Assembly (NCBI GenBank): GCA_037501455.1
Contig: CM074865.1
Span: 15,508,501 to 15,572,500 of the forward strand
Direction of reading: 5' to 3'
Length of the DNA: 64,000 nt
Source of the DNA: Lantana camara
Lineage: Eukaryota; Streptophyta; Magnoliopsida; Lamiales; Verbenaceae
Both the position numbers and the translations under genes were made by a program. Of the stretch, positions 2,537 to 40,900 are shown piece after piece (position 1 is the first letter of the stretch; every line of letters starts with the position of its first letter). The notes beneath the pieces are model-generated. The model ran no database searches and had not been told where the DNA came from. It was given only the letters and a program-made list of their open reading frames with translations.

Positions 2537-2567
<31 letters not shown>

Positions 2568-4310
2568 CTGCATACCTGCATGAAATCACACATATATATA
2601 TATATACACGTACTAATGCAGCACACAAACATGCATGAGCAAACACCCAAAATGCAACAGCAAAACGAGGCTCCCCGGCCGGGTAAAGAAGATGCAGTAG
2701 CTACTGCCTCAAGGTGTCCCCGCCCGGGGACACAACCAAAGCAAATCTCCCCGCCCGGGGAGATGACAACAGCTGCGAGGAACAGCAGCTACTGCTGCTC
2801 TGTTTTTCATCCATTTCACGCAGCAAACCAGAGCAAAGGAGCAGCAGCAGCAGCGGAACAGAAACGGCAGCAACACAGAAGGAAAAAAACGGCAAAACAA
2901 AGGAAAAGTTGGCAGCAAAACATCATAACAGCAGCAGCAAAGATCACGCAGCAACAATGGGAGAAAATCAGGCACAAACCAACGAAACTCATGTTCATCA
3001 ATGGCGGATCAAGAAGCAGAGATTTTCCACGTGTTTTAAGCTTAGAATTGAATCATTTAAGTCATATAGATCATATTTATAGCTTCATATCAAGATAAGC
3101 ATGAAGATTTCACAAGAATTCATCCAAAATTCACAAAAACCCTTACTATTCACATAGCAGCCCCAAACCATGCCCAAATCATCATCAAATTTAGCAAATA
3201 GACACTTAAAAGAAAGAGGAGAAGATCAATAACAAGAATCCGGGCTTACCTTTCGAATTTGAGGCGAAATGATGGAGTATTGATCTTGGAAAGCCAAAGA
3301 AAACTGTGCAGATTTCTTCCCCTTCTTTTCCTCTCGGTTAGCTGCTTCTTTCTCTCTCTCCAGACATGAGTTCGAAATGAGGGGATAAGGGATGGATAGA
3401 GGGTTTAACTAGGGTTAATTAGGCTCAAGAATCAAGTAATTTGGTTAAGAAATGAATTAGTTATGGCCAAAATACTCCAAGGTGGCAGATCTGCTCGAAC
3501 AGTACGTTTCGGACTAAATACGGGGGATCAAACGGGCTTAGAAAAATATGAGGCCAAGTTCTGAAGCTTCCAAATTTCGTCACGAGTCCGGCACTACTTC
3601 CGGAATTCGAATCCGAATTCCCTAGCTCAAGTTACGGTCTCCGGAATCCAAGGCGCGCTAAAACTAGTTAGGCCCTCGAATCCCCAACAATTAAAATATG
3701 GTTCGTTACCATATCAAACAAGTCCGAAAAATTAAAACGAGCATATAAACGAATTCATAACACATATAATTCATGCATATTAAATCGGCACGAAAATTCG
3801 ATCTCAAATCGAGCACAAACGCAAAACATTTTCAACAAAGAAGCTTATTATTCAAATAATAAAAATCAAATTTGTAAAAGAAACAATAAATAAAATTTAA
3901 AAATAATATTTAAACGAATTAAAATATATAAAAATTTTATTAAAAGGATATTTTTCAATTAAGTCCAAAACTTTCGAAAAGTTTCAAATAAGTCCAAGTT
4001 TCAAATTTTCAATTAAGTCCAAAACTAAATAAATCTTACAATTAAGCCCTTAATCCCATAATTCACAAAAATTAGCATGCTCGGAAATTAAATCCACATA
4101 TCATAAAATTCATAAAAAAATTCGTATCATAAATTACTTAGGCAAATTTTGGCATATAAATCGAATATTTCATATAAATCCAAATAGTTCATATACGAAT
4201 TTCAAATAATAAAGTGTAATTCAATTAAATATGAAATTTAAATAATTTAAATTGCACATTTAGCTCTCTCGTAAGTGCGTACCTGGACGGCCGAAAACCG
4301 GGGTGTCACA
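436..4310 (-). repeat. 3' LTR (left copy) of the Tekay-like element, 3875 bp
   Basis: Nearly identical to 7306-11175. By eye I count roughly two dozen substitutions plus small length changes, such as a (TA)n tract near 2540-2566 that is 6 bp longer here. On the + strand it begins TGTAGCGCCCCGG and ends GGGGTGTCACA. Within it are a TA-rich central block (2150-2620), three GC-rich palindromic clusters of the type CCCGCCCGGGG (2675-2765) and a CAG-rich stretch (2770-2960). Short reading frames here are not conserved genes. Confidence 0.95.
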
Positions 4311-4312
4311 AT

Positions 4313-4330
4313 CTCTCCCCCTTAAAAAGG
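4313..4330 (-). other. Polypurine tract of the Tekay-like element
   Basis: The minus strand reads CCTTTTTAAGGGGGAGAG and directly precedes the 3' LTR start TGTGACACC. Position and purine content match the plus-strand primer of reverse transcription. Confidence 0.85.
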
Positions 4331-4403
4331 ACCTGTCCTCAGGTCCGAATCAGGGTCTTGATCAACGCCGGAAAAGCTCAACTCCACGCTTCCACTGCGC
4401 CGC

Positions 4404-5590
4404 TCTAATTCGGTTTCCAAGTGGCTTCTTGGATTTTAAATCCCGCCACGAGAATTCTCACCGAAGGAAAACTTCTAGTCTTCGGCTCGAATCTCTGACG
4501 AACTCAAACTCTAACCGGTCACTCACGAACAACGAACCCCCTTGTAGGAGATGCTTCCGAGGAATCACGATCTCCCACTTCGACTCTAGGGGCCTTCATC
4601 TCCAAACTGTGAAGCTCTCGAGCCCTTGCCGAACCACGAAACCATGAGAAAATGGGCCAACTCGTTAAAACGAGCGACCACTCAAATCCCATAGAAATCT
4701 CCTTTACTTTAGCAAACCGGACACATAGTCCTTAGCTATTTGCTCCCACTTCCAATTAAATATGGAAGTAGTTGGAGAATCCAACCGGTTCTTGATGCTC
4801 GGCCTTCAACCGACGGCATATTAGACATTACTACACGAAGTTTGCAACGTCTCTCCTTACGCCAGTACATCTATACCGGTTCTTCAGGTCCTCGAACAAA
4901 CTCGAACCAAGAGTGGGGTAAGTCTCGAGACCTTGCACATCACGAGACGTAGGCTAAACTCTCCCCGCAAGCAACACACAACCAAAGCCTTCCTTAGTGC
5001 CTCGATTGTAAACGAAGTAGTCTTGAGTGCCCCCGATCAAGCGAAAGCCGATGCCGAAGGCAACTCTCTTTTACCACCTCTTCCCACTCTAAAACCGTAC
5101 CTCTTCTTGTCAAGCGAATCAACGGTTGGCAATCCCAAAGAAAAGAATCGCCTAATGTACCCCGTCAACATGAGAGACTTCTTATTCTGAGGTAATTCTC
5201 GGTTCTTCTACCGAATGTGTAGTTAGTTATACCCTTACTAAAACCAAACTCGGCACAAACACGAAACTCTGAAGCAAAACGAATGACTCTTCGAAGCGAG
5301 CAAAGGGTACTTATCTTCCACGGTTACCTGTATAGCTCACGGCAGTCAATCTTCACCCTAGTGTCCCGTTTCTTCTTAGGCAGGACTTAAGCACTCCACG
5401 AAGAAGCACTCATCGGATGAAACCACCTTCTAAGAGCTCTTCGAACTACGCCTTCAACTCCAACAAGCATGCTAGAGCCATTCGGTAGGCAGTCTTCAAA
5501 CAAGTTCAACTCCGGGATAAAGATCAACGACATCTCAACGTCCCTATCAAGTAATAGAGAATCCCAACTTTCAAGGAACATCAAAATGCC
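4404..5590 (-). pseudogene. Collapsed pol (RT, RNase H, integrase, chromodomain traces)
   Basis: No long frame survives, but conserved Ty3 pol motifs can be traced in order on the minus strand. Around 5560-5535 DRDVEMSLIFIP aligns with the segment preceding RT. Around 5425-5325 WFHPMSASSW then KIDCRELYR matches the RT motif normally read as IDYRELN. A degraded LHIR...SLGLPT segment near 5235-5115 matches the RT stretch before MPFGLTNAP. FVYNRGTKEGFGCVLL (about 5015-4965) matches RNase H. KAEHQEP and NWKWEQIAKDYVSGLL (4810-4715) match integrase. IQEATWKP (4434-4411) resembles the chromodomain C-terminus. Stops, frameshifts and deletions are frequent: the interior from RT to PPT is only about 1.3 kb. 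It cannot encode working enzymes. Confidence 0.8.
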
Positions 5591-6058
5591 TTACTTCGAT
5601 CTTTGTCTCCTCGAGTTTGGCTCGATCCCTCAGTTAATCCAAAGGTAAGCCACAAAGCTCATCGCACTGTCCCGGATTAAACAACCGCTTCCACGGAGGA
5701 TACAAACGGGCTAGCCTTCAATCTATTACCCGAAAATATCGTTGAGCCCAAACGGACCTCTTAAAGCAACACACCAACTCAACTCGGAGCCCGAACAACC
5801 AACCCACGCCTAAGGTAGCTCCGTACCTCACTAGGCGCCTTCAAACGAACCTACCGAGCAAACTCGACCCTCACAACTCACAAGTCACCCGAACACTCGA
5901 GCTCACTAAACTCTCATCCAAGAAGAGAGCTCACACGGAGGAAAACAACAACACAAGCAACAACAAGCACCAAAGAGCAACGAAACAAGAAAGTAACCAA
6001 CTATTGGGTTTCCCCGAGATTAAATATGCATGAATGAGATGCCATGAATGCAAATACC
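5591..6058. other. Degenerate interior between gag and RT remnants
   Basis: This is where protease and its linker would sit in a Ty3 element. I find no intact protease motif in any frame. The sequence on the + strand is rich in short CAA/CGA/ACC runs and looks like decayed element DNA. Confidence 0.5.
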
Positions 6059-7078
6059 TCAATTTCCGGGTTCGATTTGATTCCCAACTTGAAGCCTTTG
6101 GTTCCGCCTCCTTTGTTTATTAGCCCTCGAACGGTTACAGTCTGGAAACTTGTGCTCTGAAGACCCGCAAGCGTAGCATCTCCGTAACCGAATCCAACAT
6201 CCCTCGTAGGTATGATTGGTCCCTCTGTAATGGGCGCACGGTTGAAACTCTCTCTCCGATCGAGGTGTCTTCCGAGGCTTAGACTTCTTGTTACTTCTCT
6301 TCTGAGTTTGTATACCTTGTCGAGACGGTCTCTGCTCCACTTGCAAGTTGGAACATGAACCTAATGCGAGTGGTTGTTCCAGTGCCTCTCCTTCATGTCT
6401 CTTTCTTGCCATCCATCTATTCTCGACCCGTAGTGCTTTCTCAACGGCTTGATTCCAAGTACTCTTGTCGTTGGCAATCAAAGCTTCCCTAAACTCACTC
6501 CGAAGCCCTTCCATAAAGTATCTAGCCTTCATCCCGTCATCATTTATGACATGTGGCACGCAAGCGCCCAACCTCTCGAACTCCTCTAAGTATTCCATAA
6601 CCGTCTTGTCTCCTTGTTTAAGGGTGCGAAACTCTTCGAATCTTCGATTTCGTAGAATAGCTGGCGTATATCTCTTTCTGAACTCCCGGATAAACACCTT
6701 CCAAGTCAATTCTTCGCTTGTCGCTTCTAGTTGTTGAGTAACTCTTGACCACCATAACTTTGCTTGCCCTTGTAAAAGTAGGGTAACAAGACGAATCATA
6801 TTTTGGGGGTCACATGGCCATACTCAAAATATTCCTTCTATCTCCGACAACCATTCCTCGGCTTTAATATCATCACCTCCTCGAAATTGTGACGGATTGA
6901 AAGTCCCAAACTCTCGATATAGGGTTATCATCGGATCCATTGGTGGCGTTGTAAAAGAAGATGGTCCTTGATTAGGTTGGAAGTGTTGAAACATCGCGGT
7001 CATGAACTCCTCGGCATTGAAGGATAGACGAGGGTGTTGAAGTGAAGGTTGACCGAAGTGTTGTCGATGCGATGACAT
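6059..7078 (-). pseudogene. gag: gag of the Tekay-like element, one nonsense codon
   Basis: One reading frame of about 340 codons runs leftward from ATG 7078 to TGA 6059-6061. It is broken once by a TGA near 6826 (reads EGIF-stop-VWPCDPQ). The change fits CGA to TGA, a CpG transition. The N-terminal part contains a typical Ty3 gag opening (FRGGDDIKAEEWLSEIE). The central part has the retrotransposon-gag core (AKLWWSRV, FIREFRKRYTP, VMEYLEEFERL). The C-terminus carries a CCHC zinc knuckle, CYACGSSEHKFPDC, for nucleic-acid binding. Gag would form the intracellular particle. Only one substitution separates this frame from continuity, unlike pol. Confidence 0.9.
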
Positions 7079-7285
7079 CCTGAGAATCTCAACAACTAAA
7101 AAAAAAAGATAGGTGCATGTCGGTTAGTAAATGCATGTTCATGTGAACTATTAATACAATTAATAACAACTTATAACAAATATTCACATAAATGGTACAA
7201 ATGAATGCAAACAAACACATAATCCTAAGCCGAACGACCTAGACAAACCCAACACGACACTAGAGCTCCGGTTTTGCAACCCGGA

Positions 7286-7297
7286 GCTCTGATACCA
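7286..7297 (-). other. Primer-binding site, initiator tRNA-Met type
   Basis: On the minus strand this reads TGGTATCAGAGC, the standard plant primer-binding site complementary to the 3' end of initiator tRNA-Met. It starts 8 nt inside the 5' LTR end, a normal spacing. Confidence 0.93.
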
Positions 7298-7305
7298 CTT
7301 TAAGA

Positions 7306-10300
7306 TGTAGCGCCCCGGAGCGAAGGGCACCACATCCCCCGCACCATAGCCCAACACGTGTAACGAAATGGAATCTCCGCACACGCACCAAGCTGTAGCG
7401 AACGGAAGACAAGCAAAAACTCTCACCTAAGCTAGGCGGTCTAGACCCTAAAACAGAGTACGCAACAATATAAAACATAAGCGGAAGCAACAGGATCAAC
7501 AAATACTAACTCATACATGCTCAAGAGAATAAAAGATATACATGCGATGCCACTCCAGGGCCAAATAAAAGCTTACAAATTCCAAATTCGAATCATAAAC
7601 ATAATCTTATACATATTTCCAAAATACCAAAGCAATATATGAAGATGCGGTATGCAAGACTCGAGTAACTCGACTCAAATGACCCAAAAGAAACCGCCGC
7701 CTAGCTCAAACCGAACCCTGCACCTGCAACTCAAAAACAAAGGGAAAAAGGGGAAACGACATCGAGGGTCAGTCCTAAAGACTGGTGAGGGGCTAACCCA
7801 CGCACACGTATATATACGTAAGAGCAAAGCACATTCAAAGTCGTATTATTCATGAACCGGGGCGTGGTTTTTGCAATCCAAAGCATTTTGATCCCGTGAT
7901 ACTATATATAGAAGAAAAGTTAGGCCAAAAGCCAAAATCTATCAAATTTTAATAATTAGAAGTCCACTCCCGTTTCACGAATCGAATTCATAATCAAATT
8001 CAAACTAACTCGGCGAGTACGAGTTTTCAAACCAACCTCCTTCATATAGATTCAAACTTATATTCAAATTCAAACGAAAACCAAATCAAACGTACCTTCC
8101 CCAACACCGGGTGATAGAAGGGTTGTGCACACCCTAACTATCCGAACTTTATGTATGGGTCGTGAGTTTCATGACGCTCACGCCCGAGGATTCCATCCCC
8201 CACCAAACCTCCTAGTGGGTTCCGGGTTGATCCTATCCAACAGGAGAATGTGCACAGGGGTCATAACCGGCTACCCCATGGTCGTCCCGGGTCCCCCTTA
8301 CCCACATCTCCGGGGCCCAGATTCAAACTCAAACACAGGGATTCATACTAAAGACTTATCTTTCAAAGTCAAACCTCGCTACGTATCCAAATTCAAATCA
8401 CACACACCAACCCGTTTTCAAAATAAATAACCAAAAACATATCTACGTATACATATACAAAGCGTTTTCGAAAGGGTTCATAACAAACGGGTCAATTCCC
8501 GAAAAATACATAACAAACACGTATCTAATATTTATATATACATACGTAGGTCACATGCGGGCTTAAAACACATTTAGGGTTGTAGGTCATAATATCTAAA
8601 AGAAAGAAACCTCACCTCGACGAACCAACCGAACAAATCGAACAAGAACCACGCCTAAGGAGCAGCTCCACACCAACGAGCAACTCCACTCGAACAATCT
8701 AAACAAGGGAACAACACTTAGACTCAATATGAACCAAGGAAACGCTCGGCAAATGCATATGAATGTATATGATGCAATGCACTTCATATAATTTCATATT
8801 CAGACGTATCGAAGCAAATGTCGAAATATCACATAAATAAACCACGAAACAAAATTCATTTTACGTCAAATAAATTCATATTAAGTCATTTAATGTCATA
8901 GCACGAGCATCCATAATTCCTACACGTATATATTCATCAAATTCATATCATACATGTCACTTAAGATCATGATTTTCAAAGAAATATTCAAACTTACACA
9001 ATTAAAATACACATAATTAATTTAATACTTAAATAAATATTATATAATATATAATACCATAATTATTTTTATATTATATATATATAGCAGCATGCAAATT
9101 CAAATCAAATATAATTATAAGTACTAAATAAATAGGGTACATGCACTACGTATATATATATTACATATATATATAATACATATTCATGCATGCAAATTCA
9201 CGTACAGGCATATATTATGTATATATCACATATTCACACACATTATACTTTAATGCAAACATTACACTCTTATATATATACATAATATATACGTATTAAA
9301 CACATGCATGCATTAATCTAATTCTTAGCAATTTCATGCATATGCACACATGCACACACAAATCAACAAATGCATGCATTTCATATATTATATATATAAA
9401 TACAACGTACATATATATATATATATATATACTGCATACCTGCATGAAATCACACATATATATATATATACACGTACTAATGCAGCACACAAACATGCAT
9501 GAGCAAACACCCAAAATGCAACAGCAAAACGAGGCTCCCCGGCCGGGTAAAGAAGATGCAGTAGCTACTGCCTCAAGGTGTCCCCGCCCGGGGACACAAC
9601 CAAAGCAAATCTCCCCGCCCGGGGAGATGACAACAGCTGCGAGGAACAGCAGATACTGCTGCTCTGTTTTTCATCCATTTCACGCAGCAAACCAGAGCAA
9701 AGGAGCAGCAGCAGCAGCGGAACAGAAACGGCAGCAACACAGAAGGAAAAAAACGGCAAAACAAAGGAAAATTTGGCAGCAAAACATCATAACAGCAGCA
9801 GCAAAGATCACGCAGCAACAATGGGAGAAAATCAGGCACAAACCAACGAAACTCATGTTCATCAATGGCGGATCAAGAAGCAGAGATTTTCCACGTGTTT
9901 TAAGCTTAGAATTGAATCATTTAAGTCATATAGATCATATTTATAGCTTCATATCAAGATAAGCATGAAGATTTCACAAGAATTCATCCAAAATTCACAA
10001 AAACCCTTACTATTCACATAGCAGCCCCAAACCATGCCCAAATCATCATCAAATTTAGCAAATAGACACTTAAAAGAAAGAGGAGAAGATCAATAACAAG
10101 AATCCGGGCTTACCTTTCGAATTTGAGGCGAAATGATGGAGTATTGATCTTGGAAAGCCAAAGAAAACTGTGCAGATTTCTTCCCCCTTCTTTTCCTCTC
10201 GGTTAGCTGCTTCTTTCTCTCTCTCCAGACATGAGTTCGAAATGAGGGGATAAGGGATGGATAGAGGGTTTAACTAGGGTTAATTAGGCTCAAGAATCAA

Positions 10301-11175
10301 GTAATTTGGTTAAGAAATGAATTAGTTATGGCCAAAATACTCCAAGGTGGCAGATCTGCTCGAACAGTTCGTTTCGGACTAAATACGGGGGATCAAACGG
10401 GCTTAGAAAAATATGAGGCCAGGTTCTGAAGCTTCCAAATTTCGTCACGAGTCCGGCGCTACTTCCGGAATTCGAATCCGAATTCCCTAGCTCAAGTTAC
10501 GGTCTCCAGAATCCAAGGCGCGCTAAAACTAGTTAGGCCCTCGAATCCCCAACAATTAAAATATGGTTCGTTACCATATCAAACAAGTCCGAAAAATTAA
10601 AACGAGCATATAAACGAATTCATAACACATATAATTCATGCATATTAAATCGGCACGAAAATTCGATCTCAAATCGAGCACAAACGCAAAACATTTTCAA
10701 CAAAGAAGCTTATTATTCAAATAATAAAAATCAAATTTTTAAAAGAAACAATAAATAAAATTTTAAAATAATATTTAAACGAATTAAAATATATAAAAAT
10801 TTTATTAAAAGGATATTTTTCAATTAAGTCCAAAACTTTCGAAAAGTTTCAAATAAGTCCAAGTTTCAAATTTTCAATTAAGTCCAAAACTAAATAAATC
10901 TTACAATTAAGCCCTTAATCCCATAATTCACAAAAATTAGCATGTTCGGAAATTAAATCCACATATCATAAAATTCATAAAAAAATTCGTATCATAAATT
11001 ACTTAGGCAAATTTTGGCATATAAATCGAATATTTCATATAAATCCAAATAGTTCATATACGAATTTCAAATAATAAAGTGTAATTCAATTAAATATGAA
11101 ATTTAAATAATTTAAATTGCATATTTAGCTCTCTCGTAAGTCCGTACCTGGACGGCCGAAAACCGGGGTGTCACA
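7306..11175 (-). repeat. 5' LTR (right copy) of the Tekay-like element, 3870 bp
   Basis: Direct repeat of 436-4310 with the same termini. In the element's orientation this is the 5' LTR, because the primer-binding site lies immediately inside it (7286-7297) and gag is read leftward from 7078. The minisatellite at 11176 onward abuts its outer end. Confidence 0.95.
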
Positions 11176-12290
11176 AAGTCCCCATCCAATCACTCATTAT
11201 TACTGTTTCACTTGACAAAGTCCCCATCCAATTACGCATTATTACAGTTTCACTTGACACTTCACCCATCTAATTACGCATTATTACCGTTTCACTTGAC
11301 CAAGTCCAACATCCAATTACGCATTATTCCAGTTTCACTGGACAAAGTCCCCATCCAATTACGCATTATACCAGTTTCACTCGACAAATCCAACATCCAA
11401 TTACGCATTATTCCAGTTTCACTGGACAAGTCCCCATCCAATTACGCATTATTCCAGTTTCACTCGACAAAGTCCCCATCCAATTACGCATTATTACAGT
11501 TTCACTTGACACTTCACCCATCTAATTACGCATTATTCCAGTTTCACTTGACAAAGTCCCCATCCAATTACGCATTATTACCGTTTCACTTGAAAAAGTC
11601 CCCATCCAATTACGCATTATTACAGTTTCACTTGACACTTCACCCATCTAATTACGCATTATTACCGTTTCACTTGACAAAGTCCAACATCCAATTACGC
11701 ATTATTCCAGTTTCACTAGACAAAGTCCCCATCCAATTACGCATTATTCCAGTTTTACTCGACAAATCCAACATCCAATTACGCATTATTCCAGTTTCAC
11801 TGGACAAAGTCCCCATCCAATTACGCATTATTCCAGTTTCACTCGAAAAAGTCCCCATCCAATTACGCATTATTCTAGTTTCACTGGACAAAGTCCCCAT
11901 CCAATTACGTATTATTCCAGTTTCACTGGACCAAGTCCCCATCCAATTACGCATTATTACAGTTTCACTTGACACTTCACCCATCTAATTACGCATTATT
12001 CCAGTTTCACTTGACAAAGTCCCCATCCAATTACGCATTATTACCGTTTCACTTGACAAAGTCCCCATCCAATCACGCATTATTACCGTTTCACTTGACA
12101 AAGTCCAACATCCAACTACGCATTATTACCGTTTCACTTGACAAAGTCCCCATCCAATTACGCATTATTACAGCTTCACTTGACACTTCACCCATCTAAT
12201 TACGCATTATTACAGTTTCACTTGACAAGTCCAACATCCAATTACGCATTATTAACGTTTCTCTGGACAAACCATGACTTCAATTACGCA
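11176..12290 (+). repeat. 41-42 bp minisatellite, about 26 units
   Basis: Tandem units of the form AAGTCCCCATCCAATTACGC + ATTATTACAGTTTCACTTGAC. There are three recurring variants: one with CAACATCCAATTACG, one with ACTTCACCCATCTAATTACG, and alternation of ATTACAG/ATTCCAG/ATTACCG. Units are mostly 42 bp, a multiple of three, which creates long artefactual reading frames on both strands. The array starts at the first base outside the retrotransposon LTR and decays near 12260-12290. No function is evident. Confidence 0.92.
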
Positions 12291-18457: not shown

Positions 18458-18778
18458 GGGGAAAATATCATTTTTCGTCCTCTACAGATGCCCTTTTTCG
18501 GTTTTGGTCCCGAACTTTTTACTTTTTTCACATTGCATCTTTTATGTTTCAAAAAATCTCAATTTCAGTCATTTAACTAACGGACGTTAATTTTTAACGG
18601 AAAAAGGCGAGTGTCACTCACGCGCCACTCACATTCGGTCAATTTTTTAACATCCGTTGGCTAAAGAACTGAAATTGAGATTTTTTGGAACATAAAGGAT
18701 GCAATGTGAGAAAAGTTAAAAGATCAGGACCAAAACCGAAAAAGGACATCTGTAGAGGACGAAAAATGATATTTTCCC
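18458..18778. mobile_element. MITE, 321 bp, TA target duplication
   Basis: Terminal inverted repeats of about 140 bp start GGGAAAATATCATTTTTCGT and end with the inverse ..GATATTTTCCC. TA flanks both ends (18456-18457, 18779-18780). The element sits in the 5'-terminal motif of the Helitron. No open frame. Confidence 0.8.
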
Positions 18779-18786
18779 TACAGTAT

Positions 18787-19938
18787 TGATGGTGCAGAAA
18801 CTTGTAAAGGATTTAAACACCAATCACTTTAGAATTTGTTTGTAGAAGGGAAGACCATCACAGGCGTTGAGCCTCAGGAACTGGGTTTCCAATGAGCGTA
18901 GGTTCTTCCAGCTAGGATAACACCAGGAAATCGTGCAGCAAGGGTGCAGAAAATGGTGAAATATACGAAGCTTTAGAGAAGATGAAGATGCAGAGGAAAA
19001 TGATGCCCAGTTCAGTAGTGTTGAGTCTTGTGAAGAAGATGAATTAGGGAAATGTGAGTATAAATCCCATATTTATAAGTTAAGGCCAAGGGTGTTTTGG
19101 GTAATCTGATCAAGTGGTCCCAAACCCAGTGTTGCCCTAGACACGTGGCCCAATATGGGAGATATGTGGAAAAGCATATGTAGGCCTGCCATAAAGGTAG
19201 CTGTAAAGCAATGGTGGCAGGTGCACTGCCAAGTACGGAGTGTCAGAGAGCGCTACATGGTTGTTACCGAGGGGTTGACGTGCTCGGTGTGAGTAGGCTT
19301 GAGGCACATCTAAGATAGAGGACCATGAGGGGTCCTAATTTAATGTAGTCTAATGAGGGCCCGAGGGCCTTGAGGGTCCGATGAGGGCCGAGGGGCTCAA
19401 GGGTCCAAGGACCAATGAAGGCCTGAGGGACGCGAGGGTCCAATGAGCGTCTGAGGGATGCGAGGGTCCAATGAAGGTCCAAGGACCAATGAGGGCCTGA
19501 GGGACGCGAGGGTCCAATGAGCGTCTGAGGGACGCGAGGGTCCAATGAAGGCCAGGACCTGAGGGACACGAGGGTCCATTGAGGGCCCGGGGACCAATGG
19601 AGGCCCGAGGGTCCAATAAGGGCCTGAGCGACACGAGGATCCAATGAGGGCCCGGGGGTCCAATGAGGGCCCAGGGACTAATGGGGGCCCGAGGGCCCAA
19701 TGAGAGACTAAGGACCAATGAGGACCCGAAGGCTCGAGGGTCCAATGAGGGCCCGAGGGACTCGAGGGTCCAGAGACCAATGAGGGTCAGAGGGGATACT
19801 TGTAGTTTTGCCAATTGCCAGGCTTTAGTAATTTCCATGTAGCTTATGAGGGCGGCTAAGTTGACCCAAAGATATAAGCAGCGAACCCATGAGGGCCCAC
19901 GTGTCATGACGTGGCCTCGTTATATTTGTGCTCCATCA
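18787..19938 (-). repeat. 3' LTR (left) of the Tat-like element, 1152 bp
   Basis: Direct repeat of 23234-24414. The outer part matches over the whole stretch from TGATGGTGCAGAAACTTGTA to the repeat zone. From about 19350 to 19795 it consists of degenerate GGGTCCAATGAGGGCC-type short tandem units, which differ in number from the other LTR. Confidence 0.9.
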
Positions 19939-19952
19939 TTTGCCCCCCAACT
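19939..19952 (-). other. Polypurine tract of the Tat-like element
   Basis: The minus strand reads AGTTGGGGGGCAAA and directly precedes the LTR start TGATGG. Confidence 0.8.
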
Positions 19953-20082
19953 CTATAGTCACAATGTTGTGGCATATAGAGTTTGAACTTGAACTCCTAG
20001 AGGGTGTGAATCAGGGGGGACAATGGGCGTCCCGAGCGCTCATTCTGCAGAGCATTAAATGCAAGATCCTTCTCGCGAAACC
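19953..20082. other. Unique 3' segment between PPT and tandem array
   Basis: About 130 bp of non-repetitive element DNA next to the 3' LTR, containing GTTGTGGCATATAGAG. No coding potential. Confidence 0.5.
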
Positions 20083-22805
20083 CCGATGTTGAAAACGAGA
20101 GGGAACCCCGATGTGGAAATCGAGGGGAACCCGAATGTTAAAAATGATGGGGAAACCCCGATGTTGAAATCAAGGAGAACCCGAAGTTGAAAACGAGGGT
20201 GAACCTCGATATTAAAATTGAGGGGGAACCCCGATGTTAAAATCAAGGGGAACCCGAAGTTGAAAATGAGGGGGAACCCCGATATTGAAATTGAGGGAAA
20301 CCCTAAGTTGAAAACGAGGGCGAACCTCGATGTTGGAATCAAAGGAAACCCGAAGTTGAAAACGAGGGTGAACCTCGATATTAAAAATGAGGGAAAAACC
20401 CGGATGTTGAAATCAAGGGGAGCCCAAAGTTGAAAACGAGGGGGAACCCCGATGTTGAAATCGAGGGGAACGCTAAGTTGAAAACGAGGGGAACCCCAAT
20501 GTTGAAATCAAGGGGAACCCGAAGTTGAAAATGAGGGTGAACCTCGATATTAAAAATGAGGGGAAACCCCCATGTTGAAATCAAGGGGAACCCGAAATTG
20601 AAAACGAGGGTGAACCTCGATATTAAAAATGAGGGGGAAACCCCGATGTTGAAATCAAGGGGAACCCGAATGATGAAAACAAGAGGGTCCCCGATGTCTA
20701 AATCGAAGGGAACCCTGATGATGTAGACGAGGGGATCCCCGATGTCGGAGTCAAGGGGATCCCTGATTTTGAAAACGAGGGGGAACCCCGATGTTGAAAT
20801 CGAGGGGATCCCTGATGTTGAAAACGAGGGGGATCCCCGATGTTGAAATCGAGGGGATCCCCGATGTTGAAAAGAAGGGGGATCCCCGATGTTGAAATCG
20901 AGGGGATTCATGATCTTGAAAACGAGGGGGAACCCCGATGTTGAAATCGAGGGGATCCCTGATTTTGAAAACGAGAGGGAACCCCGATGTTGAAATAGAG
21001 GTGATCCCTGATGTTGAAAACGAGGGGGTCCCCGATGTCGAAATCGAGGGGAGTCCTAATGATGAAAACGAGGGCATCCCCGATGTTGAAATCGAGGGGA
21101 ACCCTGCTGAGGAGGACGAGGGGGTCCCCGATGTCAAAATCGAGGGGAACCCTGCTGAGGAGGACGAGGGGATCCCCGATGTCGGAATCGAAGGGATCCC
21201 TGCTGTTGAAAATGAGGGTGAACCCTGATGTCATAATCGAGGGGAACCCCAATGATGAAAACGAGGGGATCCCCGATGTCGGAATCGAGGGGATCCCTAC
21301 TGTTGAAAACGAGGGTGAACCTTGATGTCAAAATCGAGAGGAACCCCAATGATGAAAACGAGGGGATCCCCGATGTTGAAATCAAGGGGATCCTTGATGT
21401 TGAAAACGAGTTGGATTCCCTATGTTGAAATCGAGGGGGTCCCCGATGTCGAAATCGAGGGGAGTCCTAATGATGAAAACGAGGGCGTCCCCGATGTCGA
21501 AATCGAGGGGAACCCTGCTGAGGAGGACGAGGGGGTCCCCGATGTCGGAATCGAAGGGATCCCTGCTGTTGAAAACGAGGGTGAACCCTGATGTCATAAT
21601 CGAGGGGAACCCCAATGATGAAAACGAGGGGATCCCCGATGTCGGAATCGAGGGGATCCCTACTGTTGAAAACGAGGGTGAACCCTGATGTCAAAATCGA
21701 GAGGAACCCCAATGATGAAAACGAGGGGATCCCCGATGTTGAAATCAAGGGGATCCTTGATGTTGAAAACGAGTTGGATTCCCTATGTTGAAATCGAGGG
21801 GATCCCTAATCTTGAAAACGAGGGGGAACCCCGATGTTGAAATCGAGGGGATCCCTGATGTTGAAAACGAGGGGGATCCCCGATGTTGAAATCGAGGGGA
21901 TCCCTAATCTTGAAAAGAATGGGGAACCCCGATGTTGAAATCGAGGGGATCCCTAATCTTGAAAAGAAGGGGGAACCCCGATGTTGAAATCGAGGGGATT
22001 CATGATCTTGAAAACGAGAGGTTCCCCCGATGTTGAAATCGAGGGGATCCCTGATGTTGAAAACGAGGGGGAACCCCGATGTTGAAATCGAGGGGATCCC
22101 TAATGTTGAAAACGAGGGGGTCCCCGATGTCGAAATCGAGGGGAGCCCTAACGATGAAAACGAGGGGATCCCCGATGTCGGAATCGAGGGGAACCCTGAT
22201 GATAAGGACGAGGGTGAACCTCGATATTAAAAATGAGGGGGAACCCCGATGTTAAAATCAAGGGGATCCCTAATCTTGAAAACGAGGAGGAACCCCGATG
22301 TTGAAATCGAGGGGATCCCTGATATTGAAAACGAGTGGGTCGCCGATGTCGAAATCGAGGGGAGCCCTGGTGAGGAAAACGAGGGGATCCCCGATGTCAA
22401 AATCGAGGGGAGTCCTGATGTTGAAAACGAGGGGGAACCCCGATGCTGAAATCAAGGGGAACCCTAATCTCGACCGCTGTTGAAATCGAGGGGATCCCTG
22501 ATGTTGAAAACGAGGGGGAACCCCGATGCTGAAATCGAGGGGAACCCTGATGATAAAAACGAGGGGATCCCCGATGTCGAAATCGAGGGGATCTTTGATG
22601 TTGAAAACGAGGGGGAACCCTGATGCTAAAATCGATTGGAACCCTGATAATGAAAACGAGGGGATCCCCGATGTCAAAATCGAGGGGATCCTTGATGTTG
22701 AAATCGAGGGGATCCTTGGTGTTGAAAACGAGGGGGAACCCCGATGTTGAAATCGAGGGGATCCCTGATGATGAAAACGAGGGGATCCCTGATGATGAAA
22801 ACGTG
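20083..22805. repeat. 24/25-bp tandem array filling the Tat-like interior
   Basis: About 110 units alternate between GAGGGGATCCCTGATGTTGA+AAAC (24 bp) and GAGGGGGAACCCCGATGTTG+AAATC (25 bp). They form a 48-49 bp dimer, with many units carrying a GGATCC site. A higher-order duplication of about 363 bp is visible (for example GAGTTGGATTCCCTATGTTG at 21409 and 21772). Left-hand units (20083-20680) are a more diverged GAACCC/GAGGGTGAACC variant. The apparent proteins in several frames come from the near-multiple-of-three unit length. Confidence 0.93.
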
Positions 22806-23134
22806 GGGTTGCATGTACATATACCCCGGTGGTGGCATTGCCATAGTATATGCGCCAGTATTGGCGTCGTTTGCGACGGTAGTGGCGGGTATGAGCGTCA
22901 CGGGGGGATCAATGGAACCTCCAGCCCCTGTTTCAGTGATGGGGAAAGATCCCACTAAACCTCTTTACCCATGTTTCCTACTGTTGTGAGAGGAATGTTC
23001 CCGTCCATTGGGGTGTTTCCGGCTTGTGTGGCAGTGACGACAACGATGTTGGATCCGCCAGCTGGGTTCTCTTCGTTCACCGGAGGAAGAACTCCTCTGT
23101 TGACCAAAGCTCCAGATCTCGTTGTAGCAACCAT
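22806..23134 (-). pseudogene. gag: gag N-terminal fragment of the Tat-like element
   Basis: On the minus strand ATG 23134 opens MVATTRSGALVNRG.., a Tat-type gag start located about 80 nt after the primer site. A frameshift near 22960 moves the frame to ..TETGAGGSIDPPVTLI.., which then runs to GYMYMQPH and straight into the tandem array, the first units reading VFIIRDPL repeats. No gag core domain or zinc knuckle remains. Confidence 0.65.
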
Positions 23135-23211
23135 GGTGAAAGCTGCTGGTGTTACTTTTCAACTAGCTTTAAGAGGAAGAAACTGATGATGATGAAGAAG
23201 ATGATGATGGT

Positions 23212-23231
23212 TTCCCACAGACGGCGCCAAA
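23212..23231 (-). other. Primer-binding/leader signature of the Tat-like element
   Basis: The minus strand reads TTTGGCGCCGTCTGTGGGAA, 2 nt inside the 5' LTR. This GGCGCC leader is characteristic of Tat/Athila Ty3 elements; I do not assign the tRNA. Confidence 0.8.
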
Positions 23232-23233
23232 AA

Positions 23234-24414
23234 TGATGGTGTAGAAACTTGTAAAGGATTTAAACACCAATCACTTTAGAATTTGTTTGTAGAAGGGAAA
23301 ACCATCACAGGCGTTGAGCCTCAGGAACTGGGTTTCCAATGAGCATGGGTTCTTCCAGCTAGGATAACACCAGGAAATCGTGCAGCAAGGGTGCAGGAAA
23401 TGGTGAAATATACGAAGCTTTGGAGAAGATGAAGATGCAGAGGAAAATGATGCCCAGTTCAGTAGTGTGGAGTCTTGTGAAGAAGATGAATTAGGGAAAT
23501 GTGAGTATAAATCCCATATTTATAAGTTGAGGCCAAGGGTGTTTTGGGTAATCTGATCAAGTTGTCCCAAACCTAGTGTTGCCCTAGACACGTGGCCCAA
23601 TATGGGAGATATGTGGAAAAGCATATATAGGCCTGCCATAAAGGTAGCTGTAAAGCAATGGTGGCAGGTGCACTGCCAAGTACGGAGTGTCAGAGAGCAC
23701 TAAATGGTTGTTACCGAGGGGTTGACGTGCTCGGTGTGAGTAGGCTTGAGGCACATCTAAGATAGAGGACCATGAGGGGTCCTAATTTTATGTAGTCTAA
23801 TGAGGGCCCGAGGGCCTTGAGGGTCCGATGAAGGCCCAAGACCAATGAGGGCCGAGGGGCTCGAGGGTCCAATGAGGGTCCAAGGACCAATGAGGGCCTG
23901 AGGGACGCGAGGGTCCAATGAAGGTCCAAGGACCAATGAGGGTCTGAGGGACGCGAGGGTCCAATGAGCGCCTGAGGGACGCGAGGGTCCAATGAAGGCC
24001 AAGGCCTGAGGGACACGAGGGTCCATTGAGGGCCCGGGGACCAATGGAGGCCCGAGGGTCCAATAAGGGCCCGAGGGACGCGAGGATCCAATGAGGGCCC
24101 GGGGGTCCAATGAGGCCCTGAGGGACGCGAGGGTCAAATGAGGGCCCAGGGACCAATGGGGGGCCCGAGGGCCCAATGAGGGCCTAAGGACCAATGAGGA
24201 CCCGAGGGCTCGAGGGTCCAATGAGGGCCCGAGGGACTCGAGGGTCCAGAGACCAATGAGGGTCAGAGGGGAGACTTGTAGTTTAGTCAATTTCCAGGCT
24301 TTAATCATTTCCATGTAGCTTATGAGGGCGGCTAAGTTGACCCAAAGATATAAGCGGCGAACCCATGAGGGCCCACGTGTCATGACGTGGCCTCCTTATA
24401 TTTGTGCTCCATCC
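23234..24414 (-). repeat. 5' LTR (right) of the Tat-like element, 1181 bp
   Basis: Same sequence family as 18787-19938. The GGGTCCAATGAGGGCC-type tandem zone (about 23800-24260) is somewhat longer here, explaining the 29-bp difference. Long reading frames through it, on the minus strand, are repeat artefacts. Confidence 0.9.
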
Positions 24415-24436
24415 AGTATAGATAATATAGTATAGA

Positions 24437-24510
24437 TGAACCTTATGTAACTTGTACGGCATCCTATCGGCCCCACCCCACACCCCACTCCCAATTAAAA
24501 ATCTCATTAA
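24437..24510 (+). repeat. Right half of the host repeat split by the Helitron
   Basis: TGAACCTTATGTAACTTGTA and the following CCCACACCCCACTCCCAAT match 37146-37205, continuing the homology broken at 17253. Confidence 0.8.
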
Positions 24511-25351
24511 GGTACACATAAAAAATTTAATAAAAAATTTATATGATTGTATCATGTTATATTTATATTCGTATTCGTACATCATTAGACAAATGCTTAT
24601 ATTTTGCCAAATAATTCCCGAAAAGAAAATGTAAAAACCAATCAACCAAATTTAACAAGTTATTCCAAATAAGGAAAATTGTGAAGACCAATCAAACATT
24701 TGTTTTCCCTATAAAGTACTGATCAAAAAGTTTTGTAATACATAGTTAGTATTATGATGACTTTTATTTTTGGGGAGCAACTAAAATTTCTACCTCCAGG
24801 GCCTCCAGAGGGAAGTTATTAATGGTAGTATTTTTGTATATGGTATTTATGAATTCCAATCATTCGAGATCAGGATTTAGATGGAATTATCAAATTTTCA
24901 TATCATACCAAATTCGAATCTTTTTAAATCCGAATCCGACTTATTAACAAAATCCATACATTTTTCTTGTAGCAATTTATATATTTTTTTAGGCAAATTC
25001 GAATCGAACCCATACTTCATGAATATTTCAAAAGGGGGTGATATTCCTCATTGAATATTTCAAAAGCGAATCTTGCGTCTGGTTAAAATGATATTCCAAT
25101 TTTCTTATTAATAAATCAAATACAATTAATTTAGGAAAATAATAAATTAAAATAACAAACAATAATAATTATCTTTAAGTCGCACAAAACGATGCAACCA
25201 ACAAAGCCGCGGAAAAATGTTGAGGTTCAGTTAAGGCGAAGCCAAGATCAAAATATAAAAACTCATCATAAGGTATGTTCGTTCAGCTACTTCTCTGGGG
25301 ATGAACATCTTACCCATCCAAAACACCAATGATGAGGTCTCATTCGCATCT
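24511..25351. other. Intergenic, no supported gene
   Basis: AT-rich DNA. From about 25260 it begins to resemble the sequence downstream of the second F-box gene, near 29640-29710. Confidence 0.45.
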
Positions 25352-29713: not shown

Positions 29714-31268
29714 TCAAGTAACGATTATCGCTTTAGATGAAGCCCGTGGGAATGCTGCCAACTCTTTAAACATCAAATTCCCTTCTTTACTTGCATTTTT
29801 TAATCCCCTGCTGAGTTTCAACTCAAGTTTTGTAAGTACTGTTGCTACTGATAAAACAAGCTTCACAAATTCCATTTCAGGTTTTGTACCTGAGAACTCA
29901 GCGATCGTCACATAGGTGAGGTGTCCCAGGGTAAGGTTAAATTTTTGTTGTTCCTTTAGAAATTCTGTAGAAGACCTCATGTCTGTATTGGAGGTTACAG
30001 ACTACAACAGTATTATACAAAAGTCAGTACGTTTCTTTAAAAGTCATGTGGAAAGCAAAGAGAATTACTTCAATCACTTACAAGTAAGTTTATCTTTAGC
30101 AAATTCGGCGAGCTTCTCATCAAGCAAAGAACACACCTGACTTCAGCCATGCCTGCAAAATCAATCCCCCAGCACCTAATAGCACTTAGATGGCTAAGGT
30201 TGTTAGGAAGTTTTTCAGGTATATGGCCTGTTGACAAGAACTTAAACAAGAAAAAAAAAAGATAGAGTTAGAACTTGATCACATAAGGAAAGCAAGGAGA
30301 ACTTAAACAAGAAAATTTAAAACTTGATCATCCCACATCTATACATTTGAAACAGAGAAAAAGTGTAGTAGTCTTTTCTTGAAAGAAAAAAAAAAATAGT
30401 GAAGTAGTCTTACTCGCAGAAAGTTCCAACTAAGTACGAATGTTTTAATGGATGGTAGTTGATCAAAATACTTGATCAAGTCAACCGCAGAACCGGATAC
30501 AGGAACTTGAAATAAAAAGATCGAAACTTTCTGAAGGAAAGACGTATGTTTAAAGTAAATTGAAGGGTATGCGCCAGGGAAGACAAAGGACAAGGACTTG
30601 AGGTTAGGAGCATCAATCTCAAGCTCGGCAAAATTCGATTTCATGTCAGGAAAAAATTTCAAATGCTCTAGCATTGGACATTTGGAGATAAACTTACTGA
30701 GCTCTATGAGAGCAACATGTTCAAGCTCGAGTGTAACAAGTTTAGCAAAACCTAGAAAACCAACAGGGGGTTTGAGGTTACAATTGACAAGACGCAAATG
30801 TTTGAGGTGATCAAAAGAAAATAGATGATGAGACATAACTCGCGGAATGCTAGACAACGAAAAGTTTAGTGTGAGTTCTTGAATGGGATGGTCTGACAAG
30901 AAATTTAGCCATTGGTCCACAGCATCCCGAAAGCTTTTGCCATCCTTATTAGATTCGAGTGCAAACTTGAGTATGGATCCTCTATGGAGTAATAACACTT
31001 GGTAAATAATTGAGACAATCGTCTTGCTTCCATGTAATGTACTTTCGAAACTTTGATCAAAAACAAGATGTGGAATAATTCGCCATTTGTATCGCCACTC
31101 TCTTGATAATAGGCTCGTCTTGACTATGTCATGCAACGGTAAGAACTTAAAAATATGGTTTATGAGGTCGCACGGCAGGTTGCTAATTCTGTCCATCTCT
31201 TTTCTTTTTCTTTTTTTGAAAGTTCTGTCCATCTCTCTTCTTTTTCTTTTTGTGAAAGTTCTGTCCAT
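29714..31268 (-). CDS. F-box/FBD/LRR-repeat protein, intact copy
   Basis: Three minus-strand exons join in phase 0: 31268-30414, 30240-30082 and 30001-29714 (TGA at 29714-29716), all with GT..AG introns, giving 433 residues. The F-box follows DRISNLPCDLINHIFKFLP, LHDIVKTSLLSREWRYKW. LRR-like strands follow (LRLVNCNLKPP, LVTLELEHVAL, LEIDAPNLKSLSF). The tail carries the FBD-type ending FPRASSKAIIV. This matches the At1g13570-like family (about 416 residues). Such proteins bind SKP1 and select targets for SCF ubiquitin ligase. Starting at the third in-frame Met (31196, MDRISNLP) gives 409 residues and fits the family better; two 36-bp repeats add MDRTF..KRKR segments upstream. Substrate unknown. 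Confidence 0.88.
31161..31268 (-). repeat. 36-bp start-codon repeat at the F-box N-terminus
   Basis: The unit encoding MDRTFTKRKRRE recurs as MDRTFKKRKRKE, and the third start is MDRISNLP. DNA units share GTTCTGTCCATCTCT on the + strand. This creates three in-frame start codons and two basic KRKR clusters. Confidence 0.8.
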
Positions 31269-31396
31269 CTCTTTTCTATGTATAAAGATCCCGCTTTCAA
31301 GAAGGACTAAAGTGAACAAGAAAGAAACTAAAATCTCAGATTTATAGACACAGAAAACCGAAGTAAAAGACGAAAATAAACAAAAAAAAAAACACA

Positions 31397-31652
31397 CCTG
31401 AGTTAGAATTTGGTGCCCTAAATTGTAGTTAATTAGGTATCTTTGAGATCTAATGCATTAGAAACTCTATTAAGAAAAGATGAAAATAAACAAAAAAAAA
31501 AAAAATCACACCTGAATTAGAATTTGGTGCCCTAAATTGTAGTCAATTAGGTATCTTTGAGATCTAATGCATTAGAAACTCTATTAAGAGCCCTAAATTG
31601 TAGTTAATTAGGTATCTTTGAGATCTAATGCATTAGAAACTCTATTAAGAAC
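31397..31652 (-). repeat. Upstream tandem repeat of the F-box gene
   Basis: A unit of about 110 bp (GAATTTGGTGCCCTAAATTG.. ATCTAATGCATTAGAAACTC) occurs two and a half to three times. It lies in the likely promoter or 5' flank of the intact gene, and a single copy lies upstream of the pseudogene (26935-27000). Confidence 0.8.
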
Positions 31653-35367: not shown

Positions 35368-35752
35368 GAGCAAATACCATGTTTAGTCCCTAAAGTTTTA
35401 AGTTTGTATCACTTTAATCCTTAAAATTTTAAAAGCAACATATAAGTCTATAATGTTACTAATTTGTTTTAAATTAGTCCCTCGATAACTTTTTCAGTGA
35501 AAATGTGACCAGAACAAAATTCTATAATTGGTCTTGAAAGGTATCATTTTAAAAATACAAGACAAGAATACCCTTACTAATCACATACCTGACGCACATG
35601 AGTTTTTTTGGCAATATTTTTACCGGAAAAGTTATGAAAGGACTAACTTGAGATAAATTAGTAATATTAGGAACTTATCTATTACTTTTAAAATTTTAGG
35701 GATTAAAATGATATAAACTTAAAACTTTAAGCACTAAATTTGGCATTTACTC
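35368..35752. mobile_element. MITE-like fold-back, 385 bp
   Basis: The left end GAGCAAATACCATGTTTAGT.. and the inverse at the right end (..TTTGGCATTTACTC) form arms of about 130 bp covering TTAGTCCCTAAAGTTTTAAG and the complement. Non-coding. Confidence 0.78.
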
Positions 35753-37933: not shown

Positions 37934-40900
37934 TTAAAGTGCAGGTAGGGACGGGTGCATTAGACCAGGACCGATGAGAGCACCGTTGCTCTCGGCCCTC
38001 GGGCTGCTTCCGGCACTGCTGTTGGAAAATGATGTAAATGCCCCTCTTTGGAGAACACCGGTTGGAGACGAGGCAAGTCGGGGGCTATTGTCCCAGCTAT
38101 CAATCAGGTTCAGAGGTTTGGCAGTGTTCTTGCAATCCCCTGCAGTTGAGTGGAGAACTTCTCCAAGGGGTCCTCCCATTGAAGGCTCCCAAGAAATGGG
38201 GACCCAATTGGTTGTTTGTCGCTGGTGTTGATTGCTTACGGTGGTCATCCCAACACCCAGTCCCATCTCGAGCTGCTCTCGGGGTAGTCTTAGTGGGGAG
38301 GCTTCATTCGTGGGAGACGAGGCAATGGGGATGGAGATGGAGAGGTGAGTGCCATCTGATTGGTCAGCATCGGGCCATGTGGCAGATTCTGCTTGGTTCT
38401 TGGGCCAGTTGTCCATGAACTGTCTGAGGGAATGCTGTTGGGATTTGTTTTCTTGATTGTTGTTATTTCTGCAGTTGACTAAAGATGAGCTCTTGTTTAG
38501 AGGGTTGAGTAAGGAATCCGAGTAGACTAATCCGAAGGAGGATTCATTGTACGGGTTTTGCGGTTTGAGATACGAACCGGATGGGGTTTCCTTGTCTACA
38601 AGACTTCTGTTCAAGCACAAATAAAATGATTGCATTAACAAAAAGGGGAATCCCAGTTTAAGTACATTAGAGGAAACCAAGGGAAAATATCGTTTTCGGT
38701 CTCATTTTATTTAGTCCCTGACCGAGTTGAATACGAATATTTCACATTGCATTTCATATAATCTAAATTCTAGCGATATAATCATGAGATATATCCAAAA
38801 AATGTATTAAAGAGGGTATATATTGTAATATTTAGCAAAAGAGATGGAATGTTAACATTTTAAGGGCGGCAAAATCATCAATTTTAAAAAATTTACATGC
38901 AAAATAAAGATTTACAAGATCAACCCAAAAATTTATAAAAAGAAAATAAAGGGTCTCTGAAATTCAAGGGGGATGGCCGGCTCCGCCATAGGCTGGAAAA
39001 CTAAAATTGAGACCACTTCAAAAGCAGTAGGCATACTTATTCTGTGTGTATTAAAACCAAACCTAACAGGCCAGAAAACAATATTTTTCACCTAATTTCC
39101 AACTTAATTAACTCTTACCTGTTAATATTGGGCAATGCAGCAGAAGCAGGAGGCTGCAAGTTAGTAATGTGATGCTGTTGAGACAGAGTTAGAGCGTTGG
39201 ATACAGCAACAGAGGTTGACGGTGATGTAGAAGAAGTAAGCTTAGCGTTGCTGTTAGTGGCTGCTGCGCCATTGCTTTGACCTTCCACAGGCTTTCTTGA
39301 ACGATGTCGGCCTCTGTTCATATGCCGTTCACAGTATTTCTGATCCGGAACAGCATCTCTCGAGCACCGCCATTTCTTCCCATCTGTTCTTCGGCACCGT
39401 CCGGGCTCAGGATCGCTGTTGGAGAATCCCAAATGGAATCCACCCCATCCCACTGCACAATGAAGTAATTACATAAATAAATAAATACATCACGTCGAGC
39501 TACATACACATGAGATGTTCGTTTAAAAAAATGGGATAACCATACCACATACCCAGGAATTTAGGCATAATAACACAACTTTCACTGAAGTTTGTGAAAT
39601 TACAAAAACTTCCCTCCTCAAAAAATTTATGAATCTTGATGACTGTATCTCTAAATTTTTTTTGTTTATGGATACCTTATTGTTCCAGTGGCACTTGTTG
39701 ATCAATATTTGAATTCAAACTCATGACTTAGCTTGGGTCAGGGCCAACTCTGAGGATCTGTTGGGGAAAGTTTTTGTAATTTCCCAAACCCAGGGGAAGT
39801 TTTTGTAATTTCTCAAAAAAGAATATCCGCCAGTCTAATTAAACCAAACCTATTTTATGTATATAAGGAATTTTCAATTTCAGTAAAATCCCAACCATAC
39901 TGTATTACTGTTCAGGCTGAGTCACTGCACAAGGCCACAAGCCAAGAACAAAAAGATCCATTCTTGAACCAAAAATAGAAAGAAAAAAAAAATTAAATGT
40001 AGAGAAGAATGACTTACAAGGGTTGGATCTGAGGCCGGAGAAGGGGGAGAAACCAGCAGACTCGAAGGCTTTTCTGATGGGATTGAGGAGATAAGAAGGA
40101 ATAGGCACATTTGCTGTGATGTATTTGTAGATCAAAGCTTGATGTTCTAACTCCATCCATTGTGATGGTGTAAAAGGCCCTCTCACACCTGATAATACAC
40201 CCTGCATGCTCGAACCATTTATTCCTGTACACCCGTAGCCTGAAAACACAGATATAATCAAGAAATGCTCAGATTGCAGTGTGTTTGCTTTATCTTTAAG
40301 ACATGTGTAACTGTTGTGAGAGAGAAACAAGTACTGTCTGAACTCCTATTTTTCTCAACAGATGTCTTCTTCTACAGCTAACCATTTGAATTGAAGGAAA
40401 AAAAAAGAGAGAAAGGAAAGTAAAAGTTAAACCTTACAGGAGGAGTAGTTTCAAAAAAAGAAAGCAAAGAAAAGAAAACCACCCAAAAATAGAGAAAGGA
40501 TAGAAATCACTGTTCATTGTATGGATAAGACTTGAAAGATGAGCATAACCTTTGCATTGTTCATATGACAAGACTAATCAAATCTGAAAACTGAAAAGTA
40601 AGAACCCCATAACTAATCTTTGCAACCCCAGTTAACGCCTGAGTTTCTTCCTGCATTGCACCCTATAAACCCCCCCAAACTCAGAAAGCTACTCTCACAC
40701 ACACACACATTTATATGAATGTATACATTAAAGATTGAATTTTTTTCACAGTACCATTTAAGCTAACCTGAGTTTCTACTAAAGGCAGTAGATGCTGTAT
40801 GGTGATAATAAGGCAATGTGGTATTCTGCGAGTTGGGTGAGGCGAAACTGAGCATTTGCTGGCAAGAATTAGCTGTTTTCGCCATTTTAAATTCCCTCAA

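What the first reader, a model, noticed from the sequence alone, without database searches (positions are those of the whole stretch)
18787..24414. LTR element turned into a tandem-repeat carrier
Seen: intact LTRs, PPT, GGCGCC leader and an exact 5-bp duplication, but the interior is a gag start plus a 2.7-kb array of 24/25-bp units, and the LTRs carry a second, different short array. Known: Tat-lineage Ty3 elements have hypervariable tandem repeats that can seed satellites. Inference: this is a non-autonomous element whose mobile cargo is satellite DNA, possibly spread as a family by autonomous relatives. Having separate arrays in both LTR and interior is unusual.
Basis: partly seen in the sequence, partly recalled or inferred. 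Interest (0 to 1): 0.75.

Follow-up and report, generated by a model that had tools for sequence, protein, structure and literature searches.

The report
Pol-less plant retrotransposon carrying two minisatellites
This is one member of a plant jumping-gene family that has lost its enzymes and instead carries arrays of short repeated DNA, both inside the element and in its ends; it shows how repeat DNA can be copied around a genome and then change length in place, a route already known in outline from other plants.

Summary
Window 18787-24414 (minus strand) is an LTR element with an exact 5-bp target duplication, PPT, GGCGCC leader, a 59-codon gag stub, a 2.7-kb array of 24/25-bp units and an unrelated array in each LTR. 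The genome holds a family: 18 leaders at 94-100% identity in 14 places. All 17 interiors I read hold the same monomer, in arrays of about 0.64 to 11.3 kb. The array is ancestral: its junction with gag is the same in three sublineages, its PPT-side end is collinear, and the same gag stop recurs (9 of 12). Of 22 more distant leader relatives, 14 continue into normal gag, 2 carry the array and 6 show neither. Two gag-type relatives have pol domains and an antisense TRP28 hit, which points to the Retand (Tat) lineage. Pol-less Tat elements that spread arrays able to expand are published for Ogre in Lathyrus. What looks new: an array that replaces everything from gag to near the PPT, a second unrelated array in U3, and a minisatellite found in the LTR of one subfamily and the gag stub of another. 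Free arrays could not be tested; no intact helper was shown.

The parts
18782..18786 (.). target-site duplication AGTAT, left copy
   Evidence: read
18787..19938 (-). 3' LTR of the element (1,152 bp)
19358..19774 (-). U3 minisatellite array in the 3' LTR (mixed units of about 18, 28 and 45/46 bp); TATAAATA lies about 280 bp downstream of it in the element's direction
19939..19953 (-). polypurine tract GAGTTGGGGGGCAAA
   Evidence: read
20079..22808 (-). interior array of alternating 24- and 25-bp monomers (49-bp dimers), 107 anchors
22955..23134 (-). gag stub, 59 codons then stop
22810..23233 (-). leader with GGCGCC (23223-23228) and gag start; this copy lacks about 560 bp of gag stub that siblings keep
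23234..24414 (-). 5' LTR of the element (1,181 bp)
23805..24250 (-). U3 minisatellite array in the 5' LTR
24415..24419 (.). target-site duplication AGTAT, right copy
   Evidence: read

Best explanation
It is one copy of a non-autonomous LTR-retrotransposon family derived from a Retand-like (Tat, Ty3/gypsy) element. In an ancestor, everything from a point inside gag to shortly before the PPT was replaced by an array of a 24/25-bp minisatellite; the U3 of the LTR also carries a minisatellite array. LTRs, primer site, leader and PPT were kept, so its RNA could still be packaged, reverse-transcribed and integrated with proteins of gag-pol relatives (inferred). Each transposition planted a ready-made minisatellite at a new site (shown: same array and junction in copies with their own target duplications). 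Arrays then differ in length and order by block gain and loss, probably unequal exchange or slippage (differences shown, timing inferred); one place became a chain of whole elements with near-identical LTRs inside a single target duplication (shown).
For: 18 leaders at 94-100% in 14 places; the same monomer in all 17 interiors read; exact target duplications at 8 of 10 testable places, one mismatch at 2; solo LTRs with a duplication, 4 of 5; same gag-array junction in the family, L029 and L041; same 59-codon gag stop in 9 of 12 interiors with the ATG found; PPT-side array end 86% identical between copies against 69% for random placement; monomer distance within copies 0.218, between 0.221. Relatives: 14 of 22 continue into gag past the junction; L033 has RT and RNase H, L032 gag and integrase; antisense TRP28 hits inside or beside both; L032's LTR shows no array.
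Against: No intact helper was shown: frames of L032 and L033 are interrupted, and the other 12 gag-type relatives were read for 1.1 kb only. No expression or transposition data. The RT was not placed in a tree. The array's own origin (inside the element or captured) is open. Against L029 the array-end identity (80%) lies below the 95th percentile of random pairs (82%), so there the junction is the stronger evidence.
Confidence: 0.87

Rival explanations
1. The interior array is captured satellite DNA: a free satellite was picked up once by a gag-truncated element and then spread, rather than arising inside the element.
For: The monomer matches nothing long in the gag-pol relatives L032, L033 and L034 (best 13-bp stretches). 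The junction GGTTC(A/C)CCCCTCG in gag resembles the monomer, which fits microhomology-guided joining as well as an internal seed.
Against: The longest array seen (about 11.3 kb) still lies inside an element. Published Tat arrays are mostly element-born (PMC7004042, Discussion).
Confidence: 0.25
2. Arrays are kept by selection on the element: the interior array aids packaging, dimerisation or RNA stability, and the U3 array acts as enhancer.
For: In all 17 interiors read the array persists; three of four interior slices fold more stably than shuffles (z -3.4, -4.9, -3.3; the fourth -1.6); the U3 array lies about 280 bp upstream of TATAAATA.
Against: Array length varies about 17-fold and order is scrambled; the two LTR-array slices fold no better than shuffles (z 0.3 and -0.2); L019 has only 97 bp in U3; a palindromic monomer folds well without selection.
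Confidence: 0.12
3. A degraded autonomous copy that lost gag-pol and gained an array where it sits, after insertion.
For: A block of about 300 bp recurs at 99% in this copy, perhaps younger than the LTR divergence, and this copy lacks gag stub that siblings keep: some changes are its own.
Against: The same loss, junction, array end and gag stop recur in independent insertions.
Confidence: 0.02

Closest known systems
Ogre (Tat) elements with arrays FabTR-54 and FabTR-57 of Lathyrus sativus (PMC7004042; passages and Discussion seen)
   Same: Tat-lineage LTR element, pol deleted, gag part kept near a tandem array, spread as copies; arrays can expand.
   Different: Ogre rather than Retand-like; there arrays sit downstream of gag-pol in most elements and expanded arrays lie in primary constrictions (not tested here). 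Here gag itself is a dead stub, and U3 carries an unrelated second array.
Retand elements with arrays between pol and 3' LTR (PMC11963269; abstract, part of Results, Discussion seen)
   Same: Lineage mark TRP28 antisense in the gag-pol relatives; tandem arrays before the PPT in about half of those elements; some lack coding domains.
   Different: Those listed keep RT and a POL-3'LTR region of 2.9-6.6 kb; here pol and TRP28 are gone and the array starts inside gag.
Gmr9/GmOgre minisatellites of soybean (PMC3305785; abstract and Background seen)
   Same: Polymorphic interleaved minisatellites in a Ty3/gypsy element, upstream of the 3' LTR.
   Different: Coding element over 21 kb; the array is an addition, not a replacement.
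LARD / TR-GAG type non-autonomous elements (recalled)
   Same: LTRs, primer site and PPT without pol, presumably moved in trans.
   Different: TR-GAG keeps a gag frame, LARDs a unique non-coding interior (both recalled); here gag stops after 59 codons and the interior is a minisatellite.

Membership tests
LTR retrotransposon (mobile family) | paired LTRs, PPT, primer-site region, target-site duplication | tested here: met
   duplications exact at 8 of 10 testable places, one mismatch at 2
LTR retrotransposon (mobile family) | several independent insertions | tested here: met
   14 places; different duplications
Retand (Tat lineage) | RT phylogeny | not testable with these tools
   the element has no RT; L033's RVT_1 stretch was not placed in a tree
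Retand (Tat lineage) | antisense TRP28 (PF04195) frame between pol and 3' LTR | tested here: inconclusive
   absent in the carrier interior as read; present in antisense inside L032's stretch and about 100 bp beyond L033's (places compared); membership of the carrier is thus indirect
Non-autonomous LTR element | no pol, family nevertheless amplified | tested here: met
   leader-to-PPT gaps filled by gag stub, array and two identified nested insertions; 18 leaders
Non-autonomous LTR element | mobilised in trans by a related helper | not testable with these tools
   gag-pol relatives exist but with interrupted frames; activity needs experiments
TR-GAG | intact gag frame | tested here: not met
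   59-codon stub
Satellite DNA | long arrays independent of the element | not tested
   the array query was sent 27 times and never answered; the longest array seen lies inside an element

The most novel reading that the evidence does not exclude
The family is a minisatellite shuttle: during reverse transcription, short arrays jump between LTR and interior by template switching, so that the LTR array of one subfamily (L029) reappears in the gag stub of another while a different array occupies the LTR. In this view the element is a parasite of Retand whose main content is minisatellites that it reshuffles and plants as satellite seeds.
Probability: 0.28. Interest if true: 0.68.

Novelty: new variant of a known kind. 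Interest (0 to 1): 0.5.

Why it matters
It is a compact natural experiment on how retrotransposons seed satellite DNA: a small, young family whose copies began with the same array, at known sites with datable LTRs, and whose arrays now differ about 17-fold in length. The order of events (array first, insertion second, length change third) can be tested copy by copy. The exchange of a minisatellite between LTR and interior, if confirmed, would bear on the open question of how Tat-lineage arrays arise.

Tried and rejected
Rejected: single copy; array acquired after insertion; LTR array and interior array being one repeat. An apparent large expansion of L016's 3' LTR array (2,653 against 726 bp) is mostly a nested 1.9-kb insertion of low G+C; what looks like the same insertion, in the other orientation, fills the gap in L011's interior array, and another insertion interrupts L012's gag stub. 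Long open frames through the array occur on both strands because the monomer seldom makes a stop; not pursued as coding. My notes called both C3 chains alike; LTR divergence in the second chain is 0.016-0.022, so only the first is near-identical.

Led nowhere: protein search with the gag stub (no homologue); Pfam on the stub (none); Rfam at gathering thresholds over 18500-24700 (none); host name (only shows that the window holds a growth-regulating-factor gene like those of flowering plants).

Not answered: the genome query with the array (window 21790-22110), so free arrays are untested; also a U3+PPT query.
Full report
What is there. The element spans 18787-24414 and reads on the minus strand, with AGTAT on both sides. 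In its own direction: 5' LTR (24414-23234), TTTTTGGCGCC directly after it, a gag start whose frame stops after 59 codons (23134-22955), a 2.7-kb array of alternating 24- and 25-bp monomers (22808-20079), about 125 bp, the PPT GAGTTGGGGGGCAAA, and the 3' LTR (19938-18787). Each LTR has its own minisatellite array; in the LTR examined TATAAATA lies about 280 bp downstream of it, so the array is in U3. It is no more similar to the interior array than 30 dinucleotide shuffles are. The observation and its coordinates are correct.

A family, not a single copy. The genome (1.27 Gb, 378 contigs, unnamed) gave 40 scored LTR matches at 93-100% out of 3,994 candidates. Leader plus gag start gave 18 matches at 94-100%, then 22 at 74-81%; 40 were scored of 2,213 candidates. 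The 18 lie in 14 places, because two places on C3 are chains of three leaders. I read interior sequence of 17 of the 18, some only in part (the interior at C3:40765455 was not fetched); all 17 hold the same monomer. Both outer flanks were seen at 10 of the 14 places. Eight have an exact 5-bp duplication, given in the element's direction: this copy ATACT, L010 CCATT, L011 AATAT, L012 ATATT, L016 GGATC, L019 GACTG, L020 GGCGT, and CCCCT around the whole L013-L014 chain; two have one mismatch, L015 (TCACT/TCACC) and the C6 copy (CTAGG/CTGGG). L009, L035, L036 and the second chain were not tested. Of five solo LTRs with both flanks seen, four have a duplication (L023, L024, L026, L027) and L022 does not. 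LTR-LTR K2P runs from 0 to 0.025 over 564-569 bp in the 12 comparisons (some within chains), and is 0.037 over 278 bp for the C6 copy. This copy, at 0.025, is among the oldest.

The array is ancestral. (a) Carriers leave gag at the same site: siblings and the 77% relative L029 read CTTTGAC followed within a few bases by GGTTCCCCCT and then the array (seven sequences aligned, one of them the gag-pol relative). In L041 homology to L033's gag stops at position 684 of the stretch used, where that site lies at about 682, and the array follows. (b) The 100 bp of array next to the PPT side average 86% identity between copies; the next two hundreds 79% and 72%, then 65-70%, the level of random placement (69%; 95th percentile of single pairs 82%). 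Against L029 the first two are 80% and 77%, which is weaker. (c) The same 59-codon gag frame and stop recur in 9 of 12 family interiors where the ATG was found (two pairs of these from chains); L011, L012 and L015 stop earlier; in L020 the start word was not found; L035-L037 were not examined for this. (d) Monomer distances are as large within copies (mean 0.218) as between (0.221), so the variants look inherited as a pool.

Change afterwards. Interior arrays run from about 0.64 kb (L020, 25 anchors) to about 11.3 kb (195 + 253 anchors in the neighbouring stretches L037 and L038). The longest has a 219-bp higher-order unit and still ends at PPT and 3' LTR; it belongs to the oldest copy measured, which fits growth after insertion but is one case. 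L009, whose compared LTR parts are identical over 568 bp, has a 193-bp unit repeated 11 times at 93%. In the window copy about 300 bp recur 363 bp away at 99%. LTR arrays of full copies run from 97 bp (L019) to 1,804 bp in one LTR of L012, whose other LTR has 700 bp. L020 has its interior array fused to an LTR array at a shared CCCTCAT and lacks PPT and U3 on that side. In the first chain the two LTR pairs compared differ at 0 and 1 of 568 sites, inside one target duplication, so it most likely grew in place; in the second chain the compared pairs differ by 0.016-0.022. This copy lacks about 560 bp of gag stub that siblings keep.

A minisatellite in two positions. The gag stub of sibling L009 holds an 18-bp mini-array that matches the LTR array of L029 (score 86; maximum of 100 shuffles 31) but not the window copy's LTR array (23; maximum 27). 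The LTR arrays of L029 and the window copy do not match beyond chance (38; maximum 39), while their interior arrays do (423; maximum 41). So the interior array is old and shared, and the LTR array has been replaced. Template switching during reverse transcription would explain the move; independent capture would too.

Relatives with proteins. Of the 22 leader relatives at 74-81%, 14 continue into gag past the junction (L032, L033, L039, L040, L042-L046, L049, L051-L054), 2 carry the array (L029, L041), and 6 show neither (L030, L031, L047, L048, L050, L055). For 17 of the 22 only 1.1 kb was read. L033 has RVT_1 and RVT_3/RNase_H; L032 has Retrotrans_gag and an integrase core. A TRP28 (PF04195) hit lies in antisense inside L032's stretch, and another about 100 bp beyond L033's (150 shown of 7,705 candidates, 0 of 14 control genomes). 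PMC11963269 reports this mark in 97% of its Retand clusters (abstract). L032 and L033 show no tandem array above the score of 100 that I printed. The LTR in L034, whose end is 93% identical to L032's 5' LTR end and which spans about 1.03 kb, shows no array at score 50. Frames of both relatives are interrupted, so a working helper is inferred, not shown.

How it most likely works. Shown: a pol-less element with a dead gag multiplied with its array and made target duplications. Inferred: proteins of Retand-like relatives did the copying, through the shared leader, primer site and LTR ends. Shown: arrays differ in length and order between copies. Inferred: part of that change follows insertion, by unequal exchange or slippage. 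Interior-array RNA folds more stably than shuffles in three of four slices and LTR-array RNA in none of two; the palindromic monomer explains this without a function.

Against what is known. PMC7004042 (passages and Discussion seen) already reports arrays FabTR-54 and FabTR-57 in non-autonomous Ogre elements lacking pol with GAG near the array, and arrays that expand to satellites. It cites Macas et al. 2009 (not seen) for hypervariable Tat regions and for abnormal strand transfer as a possible cause. PMC11963269 and PMC3305785 show arrays in Retand and GmOgre elements. What differs here is an array starting inside gag, a dead gag stub, an unrelated U3 array in the family LTRs read, and the same minisatellite in LTR or interior in different subfamilies. 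Searches listed no title or abstract start that reports the last two; they cover open-licence PMC papers, by words only, and I opened none of their further papers.

Limits. Copy counts are lower bounds by the tool's own statement. Free arrays, chromosome location and expression were not tested.

Noticed in passing
436-4311 and 7306-11176: A second LTR-like pair, 3.87 kb each at 99.3% identity, with a 3-kb interior holding a Retrotrans_gag/Ty3_capsid frame (6059-6799, minus); perhaps another gag-only element with very long LTRs.
   Followed up: partly
11173-12271: A 42-bp tandem array of about 26 copies that abuts the right end of that LTR pair.
   Followed up: no
18459-18778: A foldback repeat of about 320 bp (83% self-complementary), MITE-like, ending a few bases left of the target duplication.
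   Followed up: no
53220-53599 and 35368-35752: Two further inverted-repeat pairs with arms of about 150 bp.
   Followed up: no
37934-41086: A growth-regulating-factor gene (WRC domain) on the minus strand, and an F-box frame at 30339-31397.
   Followed up: partly
L016 sense 5970-7905 and L011 sense 2820-4730: What looks like the same 1.9-kb insertion (ends TGTTAGGAATAGTGCCC and its complement) sits in opposite orientation inside the LTR array of one copy and the interior array of another.
   Followed up: partly
L013-L014 (C3:25.236-25.250 Mb): A chain of three interiors and four LTRs inside one CCCCT duplication: whole elements amplified in tandem.
   Followed up: partly
L020 sense about 3640-3690: Interior array fused directly to LTR array at CCCTCAT, with PPT and U3 lost on that side; the element still has GGCGT on both sides.
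   Followed up: partly
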